A stretch of DNA of 33,595 bases from the NCBI GenBank assembly GCA_029882525.1, contig JAOUKO010000007.1, positions 1 through 33,595 on the forward strand, given 5' to 3'. This document shows positions 2,797 through 12,651 of the stretch, piece by piece. The notes beneath the pieces were generated by a model. It did not search any database, was not told the origin of the DNA, and was given only the letters and a program-made list of their open reading frames with translations. The DNA is from Candidatus Aminicenantota bacterium (GTDB lineage Bacteria > Acidobacteriota > Aminicenantia > Aminicenantales > Aminicenantaceae). The position numbers and the translations under genes were made by a program. Within the stretch, counting starts at the first letter, position 1; every line of letters starts with the position of its first letter.

Positions 2797-2889
2797 CCTT
2801 CACCATGGGCTTCGGATGGAGAGGAACCGTCGCCACGCTTCCCCATTAGGCAAATGTTTACCTTATCACGGAAATAGAGATGATTACTT
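2797..2889 (+). repeat. Dispersed intergenic repeat, copy A
   Basis: CACCATGGGCTTCGGATGGAGAGGAACCG...TCACGGAAATAGAGATGATTACTT matches 10650-10739, with about 42/50 identity in the first block and 23/24 in the last block. Confidence 0.8.
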
Positions 2890-7200: not shown

Positions 7201-8679
7201 TTATTTCTCTTTATTGATTTTATTCAACATCTCAATGGCGTTGGTGTTTTTCGGATTCAGCTCGAGTGATTTGGCGTAGTTTTTAATGGCAAGCTCCTTA
7301 TCTCCGCTGAGCATGTAGGCTTCTGCCAGGCTGTCATAACCGTTGGCATTCTTGGGATAGACCTCCACGTTCAATTTAAAAATCTCAATGGCTTCACTGA
7401 TTTTTTTCCTTTGAAGAAGATGGTACCCCAGCCGGTTCAATTCATTCGTTCCGAAGTCATAGTCTTCGGGATGTTTCTTCTTGAGTTCGTGGTAGTCGTT
7501 GATGGCTGACTCGACGTCTTTCTCCAGTATGGCCTTATAGATTGCCTCGGCTATTGATTTTTTTGGCAGGTCATACGGATGACCATAAAGAATATTTCTT
7601 ATCCCGTCGCCTATCGCCCCCAACGGAGCTCCCCCTGTGTTGTTGAACAGAACAATGAGATGCTTTTGGTCAACCAGCCTTTCAATGAGGGTGTTGAAAC
7701 CGTTGATTCCTCCGCCGTGGGCAATACTTGTCACCTGTTCTTTGGAGTTCGGGAAACCTTTTTGGCCAACGGCCCAGCCATAGCCATAGTGCGCACCCAT
7801 TGCAGATACGTGCGGCTTGAACAGGATGTCTTTCCATTTTTTTGAGAGCAGTTTATCCGAGTACAAAGCCTGGTCCCAGATGTAGAGGTCTTCCACTGTA
7901 GAGTACAGTGAACCAGCCGCATAAGGAAGAGACATGTCCAGATAAGGGGCATTTTCGTATCCGTCAAAATCCATGGAATAGCCCGCAGCGCGCCCGGGAA
8001 TGATCGTATCATGGTGGTCGTATCCTGTTCCTTTCATACCTAATGGTTTAAGAATATTTTCGGTTAAGACTTCTTCGTATGTTTTCCCTGAGACTTTTTC
8101 GATGACTGCTCCCAGCAGGAAATAGCCCGAATTGTTGTAAGAAAATTGCGAACCAGGTTCGAACTCCAGGTCGCCGCTGCAGTATTTTTTGATGAATTCT
8201 TCGACTGGATAAGGGTTGCGGCTCACTTCTTCGAAAAATTGGGGCAGGCTGGTATAACTGGGTATGCCCGAGGTATGAGTCAACAAATGATGGATGGTCA
8301 CTTTCTGGCCCGTATCCTGACGGTAATAAGGCAAATAATCTATCAGTTTGCCCTGCAAATCGATCTTTTTTTGTTCAACGAGCTGCATGATCAGCATGGA
8401 CGTGAACTGTTTGGTGATGGAACCTATCCTGAATTTGGTGTCTGGCGTGTTGGGGATATTCCATTCCATATTGGCCAGGCCGATTCCCTTTTTGTAGATG
8501 ACCTTACCCTCTTCAGCCACAAGGGCTGTCCCGTTAAACTGGCCGTTATTGTGATATGCTTGGAGTAACGTATCAATTTTGCTGGCCTTATCTTGTGGGT
8601 AGCCGCGATGGGGCAGGCAGAAGAGAATCACTGCGGTGAAGAGTAAAATCATTGCTGGTGAAGATTGAATTCGTTTCAT
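7201..8679 (-). CDS. Serine hydrolase, beta-lactamase (class C/AmpC-like) family, with C-terminal TPRs
   Basis: Signal peptide; SITKQFTS (SxxK), YNNSGYFLLG (YxN), HGGGINGF; C-terminal TPR repeats (VYPKNANGYDSLAEAYMLSGDKELAIKNYAKSLELNPKN); GGAGGT upstream. Confidence 0.92.
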   Translation of the reverse strand: MKRIQSSPAMILLFTAVILFCLPHRGYPQDKASKIDTLLQAYHNNGQFNGTALVAEEGKVIYKKGIGLANMEWNIPNTPDTKFRIGSITKQFTSMLIMQLVEQKKIDLQGKLIDYLPYYRQDTGQKVTIHHLLTHTSGIPSYTSLPQFFEEVSRNPYPVEEFIKKYCSGDLEFEPGSQFSYNNSGYFLLGAVIEKVSGKTYEEVLTENILKPLGMKGTGYDHHDTIIPGRAAGYSMDFDGYENAPYLDMSLPYAAGSLYSTVEDLYIWDQALYSDKLLSKKWKDILFKPHVSAMGAHYGYGWAVGQKGFPNSKEQVTSIAHGGGINGFNTLIERLVDQKHLIVLFNNTGGAPLGAIGDGIRNILYGHPYDLPKKSIAEAIYKAILEKDVESAINDYHELKKKHPEDYDFGTNELNRLGYHLLQRKKISEAIEIFKLNVEVYPKNANGYDSLAEAYMLSGDKELAIKNYAKSLELNPKNTNAIEMLNKINKEK

Positions 8680-10603: not shown

Positions 10604-10739
10604 TGCGGCGCCGGTTCCCCTCCATCCTAGCCAAGACCCTCCCACCCTCCACCATGGGCTCCGGATGGAGGGGAACCGGCGCTGCACTTCTCCATCAGGT
10701 CAGACATTTCCTCTGTCACGGAAATAGAGATGTTTACTT
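10604..10739 (+). repeat. Dispersed intergenic repeat, copy B, with long inverted repeat
   Basis: Homologous to copy A over 10650-10739. Perfect 20-bp arms GCGCCGGTTCCCCTCCATCC (10608-10627) and GGATGGAGGGGAACCGGCGC (10663-10682), extendable outward to 24 bp with one GU and inward via AGCC/GGCT. Confidence 0.85.
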
Positions 10740-10873: not shown

Positions 10874-10916
10874 AACTAAAAAAATAGTTGCAAAACTAAA
10901 TATTTAGTTATATAAT
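10874..10916 (+). promoter_or_regulatory. blaI promoter with two tandem 16-bp palindromic operator candidates
   Basis: AACTAAAAAAATAGTT (10874-10889) and AACTAAATATTTAGTT (10894-10909) start exactly 20 bp apart. TTGCAA (10888-10893), 17-bp spacer, TATAAT (10911-10916). Confidence 0.7.
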
Positions 10917-10925
10917 ATCAATGCC

Positions 10926-11312
10926 ATGAAAGAACTGACCAAGGCTGAAGAACAGATCATGCAGATTCTTTGGAAGCTGGATAAGGGTTTCGTCAAGGAT
11001 ATTCTTGCCTGTTTGCCCGCGCCAAAACCCGCTTATAACACTGTTTCCACGATTGTCAGGATCCTGGAAAAGAAGGGGTTTGTCTCGCACGAGGCATACG
11101 GAAAAACCCATGAGTATTACCCGACCATTTCCAAGGAAGAATACACCAGGAAATTTTTAAAAAGGTTCGTTGAGAATTATTTCAGTGATTCCTTCAAGGA
11201 GTTGGTCTCGTTTTTTGCCAAAGAAAAGGACATGAGCATCTCTGAATTGGAGGAGATTGTCAGAGCGATCGATAGGGAAATCCAGAAGCAGAAAGGGGAT
11301 AAAAATGAATGA
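10926..11312 (+). CDS. blaI: BlaI/MecI/CopY-family winged-helix transcriptional repressor
   Basis: MKELTKAEEQIMQILWKLDKGFVKDILACLPAPKPAYNTVSTIVRILEKKGFVSHE is the characteristic BlaI/MecI DNA-binding domain; directly followed by an M56 peptidase gene. Confidence 0.93.
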   Translation: MKELTKAEEQIMQILWKLDKGFVKDILACLPAPKPAYNTVSTIVRILEKKGFVSHEAYGKTHEYYPTISKEEYTRKFLKRFVENYFSDSFKELVSFFAKEKDMSISELEEIVRAIDREIQKQKGDKNE

Positions 11313-12651
11313 TTTCATTCTCTATCTCGTCGAATCGGGCGTTTGCCTCGCCTTTTTTTACATTGTCTATTGGATATTCTTAAAAAAGGAGACCTTTTTT
11401 AACCTGAATCGGCTTTTCCTGGTTTCCTCTATCGGCTTATCGCTTATCATCCCCTTGATCAGGATATCGGCTCCTATCACTTCCAGAGCGCTGTTTGAAA
11501 GAACATATCCTGCTGGACCCCCTCCCGCTTCCCAAACAGCCTCCTTGGGAGTTTCAGATGTCTTACTGCTGATTTACTTCACAGGAGTAGGATTCCTGCT
11601 CTTACGGTTTGGCTTTAAACTCCTGCTTGTATTCTTGATGATCAGGAAAAACGGAGTTCAGAAATATAACGGCCTAAAGGTGGTCTTTATTGAAAGGAGT
11701 TGTTCGCCGTTTTCGTTTTTTAACTATGTTTTCGTCAACAGATCAAATGTTTCAGACGATGATTTTCAGAGGATCATCTCTCATGAAATGATTCACATAA
11801 AGCAGTATCATTCCCTGGATTTAATTATCCTGGAACTGATCACAATTTATCAATGGTTTAATCCTTTTGTATGGCCGTACAAGGGATCGCTCAAGGAGAC
11901 ACATGAGTACTTGGCTGATGATGCAGTCATTGCGCAGGGCTGCAGTGCAGCGAAGTATCAACTGCTCATCTTCGAGCAGCATGTGGGCGCGAAATTGTTT
12001 GAGTTTGCAAACAATTTCAATCAATCACAAATCAAAAGGAGGATAACCATGTTAACCAGAGGCAAATCCAAGAGATGGGCAAAATTGAAGATGCTGACGA
12101 TGCTTCCGATCATTTGTTTGTTGGTATTCGCATTCGCTGATTCGAAAGCAGCCGCAACATCTTCCCAGGCCAGCCAGGACAATGCTGATGCCATTTTCCT
12201 TGCTCCCGAAGAAGGCAGGAGTCCAGTCCTAGATGACCAGAAGAAAGCAGAGGACCAGAAGAAGAAAGAGAAGTTGATGGAGATCGAAAAAGCGGTCCAA
12301 GAGCTGAAAATGAAGTATGAGAAGACGGATGACCCGGCGTTGAAGAAGAAGATAAAGGAAAAAATCACAGTTCTGGCGGAAGAGAGGGAGAAGCTTATGG
12401 GCAACCCCAATCCCGGATGGGCTGAAATGGACGAGCTGAAGAAGCTGTATGAGAAAACCGATGATCCCGAGAAGAAAAAAGAGATCAAGATGAAGATCGC
12501 CGAGCTGGAACATAAGAAACAGATGGAAGAAACGAAGAAGATCGACGCAGCCATCACGGAGCTGAAGAAGAAATACGAGCAAACGGATGATCCTGAGTTG
12601 AAAGAGCAGATAAAGCAGAAGATCGAACAGCTGAAAAAGCAGAAAAAATGA
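11305..12651 (+). CDS. M56-family (BlaR1-like) membrane metallopeptidase with C-terminal charged repeat domain
   Basis: ATG at 11305 overlaps the blaI stop; four N-terminal hydrophobic segments; HEMIHIKQYHSLDLIILELI (HExxH) and ETHEYLADDAV; C-terminus has three [x]LKxxYExTDDPxxKxxIKxKI repeats. The ORF-track start at 11257 lies inside blaI and is less likely. Confidence 0.9.
   Translation: MNDFILYLVESGVCLAFFYIVYWIFLKKETFFNLNRLFLVSSIGLSLIIPLIRISAPITSRALFERTYPAGPPPASQTASLGVSDVLLLIYFTGVGFLLLRFGFKLLLVFLMIRKNGVQKYNGLKVVFIERSCSPFSFFNYVFVNRSNVSDDDFQRIISHEMIHIKQYHSLDLIILELITIYQWFNPFVWPYKGSLKETHEYLADDAVIAQGCSAAKYQLLIFEQHVGAKLFEFANNFNQSQIKRRITMLTRGKSKRWAKLKMLTMLPIICLLVFAFADSKAAATSSQASQDNADAIFLAPEEGRSPVLDDQKKAEDQKKKEKLMEIEKAVQELKMKYEKTDDPALKKKIKEKITVLAEEREKLMGNPNPGWAEMDELKKLYEKTDDPEKKKEIKMKIAELEHKKQMEETKKIDAAITELKKKYEQTDDPELKEQIKQKIEQLKKQKK
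12301..12648 (+). repeat. Three-copy protein-coding repeat (about 42-44 aa unit) in the M56 protein
   Basis: Units begin at about 12301 (ELKMKYEKTDDPALKKKIKEKI), 12433 (ELKKLYEKTDDPEKKKEIKMKI) and 12559 (ELKKKYEQTDDPELKEQIKQKI). Confidence 0.9.

What the first reader, a model, noticed from the sequence alone, without database searches (positions are those of the whole stretch)
10874..10926. Two tandem 16-bp palindromic operators interlocked with the blaI promoter
AACTAAAAAAATAGTT (10874-10889) and AACTAAATATTTAGTT (10894-10909, perfect palindrome) start exactly 20 bp apart, about two helical turns, and share AACTA/TAGTT half-sites. The second palindrome sits inside the 17-bp spacer between TTGCAA (10888-10893) and TATAAT (10911-10916), and the first overlaps the upstream edge of the -35. 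This geometry is what an autoregulated BlaI-family repressor would use, but the half-site differs from the well-known TACA/TGTA core of staphylococcal BlaI/MecI and CopY.
Basis: partly seen in the sequence, partly recalled or inferred. Interest (0 to 1): 0.7.

Follow-up and report, generated by a model that had tools for sequence, protein, structure and literature searches.

The report
Tandem operators of a BlaI-protease switch
Two matching palindromes inside the promoter of a BlaI-type repressor gene are almost certainly that repressor's own binding sites; the same pair sits in front of the same gene pair in Candidatus Aminicenantes and in many Bacteroidota, giving this poorly studied BlaI subfamily a testable DNA target that differs from the textbook one.

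Summary
AACTA-N6-TAGTT lies at 10874-10889 and 10894-10909, 20 bp apart, overlapping TTGCAA-17-TATAAT, with the BlaI ATG at 10926. The 36-bp pair never appeared in 100 shuffles, and these are the only two exact sites in the 3.5-Mb genome. All 17 of 60 related genomes with the orthologous BlaI (at least 60% identity) carry the pair just upstream of it; 1 of 43 others does. Of 77 mostly Bacteroidota loci, 64 have a site and 41 the 20-bp pair. In a blind scan of 119 genomes of the class of Marinifilum, 15 had an exact pair, all 12-72 bp upstream of a BlaI of this subfamily. Most likely it is the autoregulatory double operator of a BlaI-M56 protease operon. Two corrections: the site keeps the 16-bp frame and outer half (RNYKA) of CopY/MecI operators and lacks only the inner CA/TG; and the M56 partner has no recognised penicillin-sensor domain, so a beta-lactam role is unsupported. 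I found no description of this operator in the open literature searched. DNA binding is untested.

The parts
10874..10889 (.). Operator O1, AACTAAAAAAATAGTT (AACTA-N6-TAGTT)
   Evidence: conserved as the first member of the pair in 16/16 ortholog upstream regions
10894..10909 (.). Operator O2, AACTAAATATTTAGTT, perfect palindrome filling the promoter spacer
   Evidence: conserved 20 bp after O1
10888..10893 (+). -35 element TTGCAA (TTGACA in nearly all orthologs), first two bases shared with O1
10911..10916 (+). -10 element TATAAT, 17-bp spacer; 9 nt before the ATG, so the transcript is predicted to be (nearly) leaderless
   Evidence: leaderless reading is inference
10926..11312 (+). BlaI/MecI/CopY-family repressor, 128 aa
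   Evidence: Pfam PF03965 2.5e-32; PDB MecI 1okr 7e-11
11037..11051 (+). N38-T-V-S-T42 of the predicted recognition helix (MecI K43-T-I-R-T47), invariant in the ortholog set
   Evidence: helix assignment by alignment to MecI
11211..11216 (+). F96-F97, aligned with the MecI/BlaI cleavage site N101-F102
   Evidence: FF in 112 of 113 relatives read; that it is cleaved is inference
11305..12651 (+). M56 membrane metalloprotease, overlapping the end of blaI by 8 bp; coiled-coil C-terminus, no penicillin sensor domain recognised
   Evidence: Pfam PF05569 5.8e-10; AlphaFold model matches BlaR1 8exp/8exs in PDB
11782..11796 (+). HEMIH zinc-protease motif (residues 160-164)
   Evidence: H160, E161, H164 invariant in 31 sequences

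Best explanation
The two palindromes are the double operator of the BlaI repressor encoded immediately downstream. Shown by sequence: a tandem pair of AACTA-N6-TAGTT sites 20 bp apart, tied to the promoter and to this BlaI subfamily in Candidatus Aminicenantes and Bacteroidota. Inferred: each site binds one BlaI dimer; the two dimers sit on about the same face of the DNA, cover the -35 and the whole spacer, and block RNA polymerase, so blaI and the overlapping M56 protease gene repress themselves. A signal sensed by the M56 membrane protease (not a beta-lactam through a BlaR1-type sensor) activates it; it cuts or otherwise inactivates BlaI, and the operon switches on. In this genome the operon itself is the only target found; in two relatives a 6-bladed beta-propeller gene carries the same operator-promoter.
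For: Pair absent from shuffles, unique in the genome. 17/17 related genomes with BlaI of 60% identity or more have the pair, 1/43 without it does; Fisher p about 5e-14, shared ancestry not corrected for. 16/16 Aminicenantes-group and 41/77 mostly Bacteroidota loci have the 20-bp pair, 64/77 at least one site; Markov simulations of the latter give 1.7 with a site and 0 with a pair. Blind operator search: 15/15 hits at a BlaI of this subfamily, 13 of the 14 checked followed by an HExxH open frame, reversed control 0/119. Paralogous BlaI with a different helix (KPRTIKTL) instead carry TACANNTGTA. L027 is a natural variant that lost the spacer palindrome but kept TTGACA-17-TATATT, so the palindrome is not merely promoter sequence. 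The M56 partner matches BlaR1.
Against: No binding, footprint or expression data. 13 of 77 loci show no site at 1 mismatch within 150 bp (at least one of these, L058, has pairs just further upstream). The proteolysis step is by analogy; the aligned cleavage site is F-F, not N-F. One genome (G018) has the operator without a detected cognate BlaI (83% complete assembly).
Confidence: 0.9

Rival explanations
1. The palindromes bind a different regulator and merely happen to precede blaI.
For: No biochemistry links the protein to the site; G018 has a pair but no detected cognate BlaI.
Against: Presence of the site follows this one BlaI subfamily across two phyla (17/17 against 1/43; 15/15 blind hits), and apart from its M56 partner I saw no other gene common to the loci.
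Confidence: 0.05
2. The palindromes are a by-product of AT-rich promoter sequence under no selection as operators.
For: Region is AT-rich; -35 and -10 overlap the sites.
Against: Chance expectation is far too low; the conserved positions are the outer half-sites, not only promoter bases; the pair is retained in Bacteroidota where a TAnnTTTG-like element follows instead of TATATT; L027 keeps the promoter without the spacer palindrome.
Confidence: 0.01
3. The two palindromes form a transcribed hairpin or attenuator acting on RNA.
For: O1 and O2 are 81% complementary to each other over 16 nt, 4 nt apart.
Against: They lie upstream of the predicted start of transcription; no Rfam match and no terminator; the complementarity follows from both sites being palindromes.
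Confidence: 0.02
4. It is a true bla/mec system controlling beta-lactam resistance.
For: BlaI with an M56 protease as in bla/mec; a beta-lactamase-fold (PF00144) + TPR gene lies about 2.2 kb upstream at 7201-8679.
Against: The M56 protein has no recognised transpeptidase-like sensor domain; the PF00144 gene has no operator copy and is separated by an FAD oxidoreductase gene.
Confidence: 0.04

Closest known systems
CopR/CopY cop-box operators of Gram-positive bacteria (RNYKACANNTGTMRNY; PMC7253601)
   Same: 16-bp dyad, often two copies before the operon; positions 8 to 4 from the centre (RNYKA) match AACTA exactly
   Different: The inner CA/TG, necessary for CopY, is absent here; no CXC metal motif in this BlaI; the partner is a protease, not a copper exporter
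Staphylococcal BlaI/MecI operators (RNATTACAWNTGTARKNT; cited in PMC5341023)
   Same: Same winged-helix family, same register, A7-Y6-T5-A4 compatible, operator overlaps the promoter, repressor gene paired with an M56 protease gene
   Different: No TACA core here; the operator precedes blaI-M56 alone, not a resistance gene; no recognised sensor domain on the protease
B. licheniformis blaP-blaI-blaR1 with three operators (PMC3305447)
   Same: Multiple operators and autoregulation of the repressor-receptor operon
   Different: Divergent beta-lactamase gene and penicillin receptor there
BlaI-M56-TonB operons of Bacteroidota (no established name; loci L053-L131, L176-L190)
   Same: Same BlaI subfamily (PKPAYNTVSTI), same tandem operator, same operon order
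   Different: M56 proteins there usually end in TonB_C; in Aminicenantes they end in a coiled coil; Bacteroidota-type promoter instead of TTGACA-17-TATATT

Membership tests
BlaI/MecI/CopY repressor family (PF03965) | Penicillinase_R domain, winged helix plus dimerisation helices | tested here: met
   PF03965 E 2.5e-32, residues 4-116; MecI 1okr E 7e-11
BlaI/MecI/CopY repressor family (PF03965) | Operator with TACANNTGTA core | tested here: not met
   No inner CA/TG in the sites; position frequencies over 17 + 38 pairs. A variant of the operator; membership of the protein in the family rests on the domain
BlaI/MecI/CopY repressor family (PF03965) | Outer half-site RNYKA of the 16-bp operator | tested here: met
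   AACTA fits R-N-Y-K-A in register
bla/mec induction system | M56 metalloprotease encoded with the repressor | tested here: met
   PF05569, HEMIH, Foldseek to BlaR1 8exp/8exs E 3e-4 to 6e-4
bla/mec induction system | Extracellular penicillin-binding sensor domain on the M56 protein | tested here: not met
   Only PF05569 found; C-terminus modelled as helices
bla/mec induction system | Beta-lactamase or PBP2a gene under the operator | tested here: not met
   Only two exact operator sites in the genome, both at blaI
bla/mec induction system | Repressor cleavage at N101-F102 | tested here: inconclusive
   Aligned residues are F96-F97, FF in 112/113 relatives; cleavage cannot be tested here
CopY copper repressors | C-terminal CXC metal-binding motifs | tested here: not met
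   C-terminus is EIQKQKGDKNE; no CXC

The most novel reading that the evidence does not exclude
A BlaI-M56 module shared by Bacteroidota and Candidatus Aminicenantes uses its own operator code (outer half-site only, mostly as a 20-bp pair), controls little besides its own repressor-protease operon, and changed phylum together with its operators while the promoter around them was re-tuned from a Bacteroidota-type to a TTGACA/TATAAT-type element; in some Aminicenantes it has recruited beta-propeller genes.
Probability: 0.45. Interest if true: 0.6.

Novelty: new variant of a known kind. Interest (0 to 1): 0.45.

Why it matters
It gives a widespread but functionally undescribed BlaI-M56(-TonB) system a concrete DNA target, so its regulon can be read off genomes and tested. 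The exact operator marks the operon in a blind scan, which is useful for annotation. The comparison with TACANNTGTA-type paralogs in the same genomes offers a natural experiment on how the BlaI recognition helix sets specificity: N38/S41 here against K43/R46 in MecI and R/K in the paralogs. A system that regulates mainly its own protease also raises the question of what the protease is for.

Tried and rejected
RNA hairpin or attenuator: no Rfam match, no terminator, wrong side of the promoter. Regulon in the own genome: one-mismatch places exist elsewhere but were not examined gene by gene, and I do not call them operators. Other exact single sites in relatives: of 6 strays in 18 genomes, the 4 examined lie inside open reading frames, so read as chance. 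Horizontal transfer: Aminicenantes BlaI fall inside a 96/93-supported clade with Bacteroidota sequences, but their order inside it is unresolved with 128 columns and the outgroup branch is very long, so transfer is plausible, not shown. Viral contigs: one partial hit only. Literature searches for the motif string gave nothing, and for BlaI operators in Bacteroidota nothing relevant; only open-licence PMC papers were searched, so database predictions or subscription papers may exist unseen. The MecI-DNA complex paper was not held, so base contacts of the recognition helix are not cited.

Full report
Observation. The two 16-mers, their 20-bp register, the TTGCAA and TATAAT hexamers and the 17-bp spacer are at the stated coordinates. 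The exact site is expected 0.01 times per shuffled window and occurs twice; the 36-bp pair, even with 3 mismatches, never appears in 100 shuffles. The window is contig 351 of a 3.5-Mb, 508-contig assembly; in that whole assembly the exact site occurs only here.

Genes. 10926-11312 encodes a 128-aa PF03965 repressor (E 2.5e-32; nearest solved structure MecI) and 11305-12651 an M56 membrane protease with HEMIH. It is the only PF03965 protein found in the genome. The M56 model (mean pLDDT 83) matches S. aureus BlaR1 in Foldseek, and its C-terminus is helical, lysine/glutamate-rich, with no sensor domain recognised. The nearest named relatives of the BlaI are from Candidatus Aminicenantes and then Bacteroidota, so the host is taken to be an Aminicenantes bacterium (inference).

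Conservation in relatives. Among 60 related genomes, 17 (own included) encode a BlaI at least 60% identical to this one; the next-best homologs are at most 36% identical. All 17 carry the tandem pair (up to 2 mismatches) just upstream; one other genome of 43 carries a pair (G018); the reversed-pattern control is 0 of 60. In 16 ortholog upstream regions the 20-bp pair (1 mismatch or fewer per site) is present 16 times, and some have further sites upstream. L027 lost the spacer palindrome but kept TTGACA-17-TATATT and two upstream sites, which separates operator from promoter constraint.

Conservation in Bacteroidota. Of 77 mostly Bacteroidota loci brought in by protein similarity, 64 have a site (1 mismatch or fewer) within 150 bp and 41 have the 20-bp pair; first-order Markov simulations give on average 1.7 and 0. 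The converse, blind test is stronger: searching 119 genomes of the class of Marinifilum for the exact pair alone gave 15 genomes, control 0, and every hit lies 12-72 bp upstream of a BlaI of the same subfamily; 13 of the 14 checked have an HExxH open frame next (L177, helix HQNTVST, was recognised by eye and its next gene not checked).

Promoter. In Aminicenantes the pair is fitted to TTGACA (bases 15-20 of the pair) and TATATT directly after O2, with 9 nt from -10 to ATG in the 16 orthologs; a start about 7 nt after the -10 would make the mRNA leaderless or nearly so (inference). In Bacteroidota O2 is commonly followed by T-A-T-N-T-T-T-G, which fits the TAnnTTTG -7 element known for that phylum (element from own knowledge; frequencies). 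The operator geometry is thus the same around two different promoter types.

Operator code. In register from the dyad centre, the refined CopY operator is R8 N7 Y6 K5 A4 C3 A2 N1 (PMC7253601) and the MecI/BlaI consensus N8 A7 T6 T5 A4 C3 A2 W1 (PMC5341023). This operator is A8 A7 C6 T5 A4 with no C3 A2. Paralogous BlaI in the same family of genomes (L017-L019, helix KPRTIKTL) have GACTACAT/TTGTAATA-type sites that keep CA. The helix change (N38, S41 here; K43, R46 in MecI; R and K in the paralogs) is a candidate cause; this rests on few lineages and is inference.

Regulon. In 18 Aminicenantes-group genomes there are 38 exact single sites: 29 at blaI, 3 at two beta-propeller genes, and 6 strays of which the 4 examined are inside reading frames. 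The two off-blaI pairs precede 6-bladed beta-propeller/NHL proteins (L140, PF17170 2.6e-10; L146, NHL 3e-6) with a TTGA(C/A)(A/T)-17 promoter arrangement like that of blaI. Such propellers may be common in these genomes, so two cases are suggestive only.

Mechanism, step by step. Shown: sites, promoter overlap, operon, subfamily-specific association. Inferred from family knowledge: BlaI dimer binding at each site, repression by promoter occlusion, relief through the M56 protease. Unknown: the signal.

Origin. A tree of 93 BlaI places the Aminicenantes sequences in a 96/93-supported clade together with Bacteroidota sequences, without resolving how they branch inside it. A past transfer of the module with its operators is plausible but not demonstrated.

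Noticed in passing
window 10604-10686; half copy at 2814-2833 (-): A 24-nt inverted repeat (35-nt loop) whose arm GCGCCGGTTCCCCTCCATCC occurs 69 times on + and 73 on - in the own genome with up to 2 mismatches, reversed control 0; arms often lie about 55 bp apart in inverted orientation. Looks like a REP/REPIN- or MITE-like family.
   Followed up: partly
window 10911-10928 and L020-L034 upstream regions: 9 nt between -10 and ATG in the Aminicenantes orthologs: predicted leaderless blaI mRNA.
   Followed up: partly
L140:1501-2776 and L146:328-1536: The same tandem operator and promoter upstream of 6-bladed beta-propeller/NHL proteins, possible further targets of the repressor.
   Followed up: partly
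window 11305-12651 compared with L062, L068, L077, L086, L100, L113, L130: The M56 protein in Bacteroidota is usually fused to TonB_C, sometimes with a CarbopepD_reg or plug domain; in Aminicenantes that part is replaced by a lysine/glutamate-rich coiled coil.
   Followed up: partly
L094 (JACTVG010000101.1): A contig binned as a Methanoregulaceae archaeon carries a BlaI with zero branch length beside Bacteroidales sequences; likely a binning error.
   Followed up: no
window 7201-8679 (-): Beta-lactamase-fold (PF00144) protein with C-terminal TPR repeats near the blaI operon, without an operator copy.
   Followed up: no
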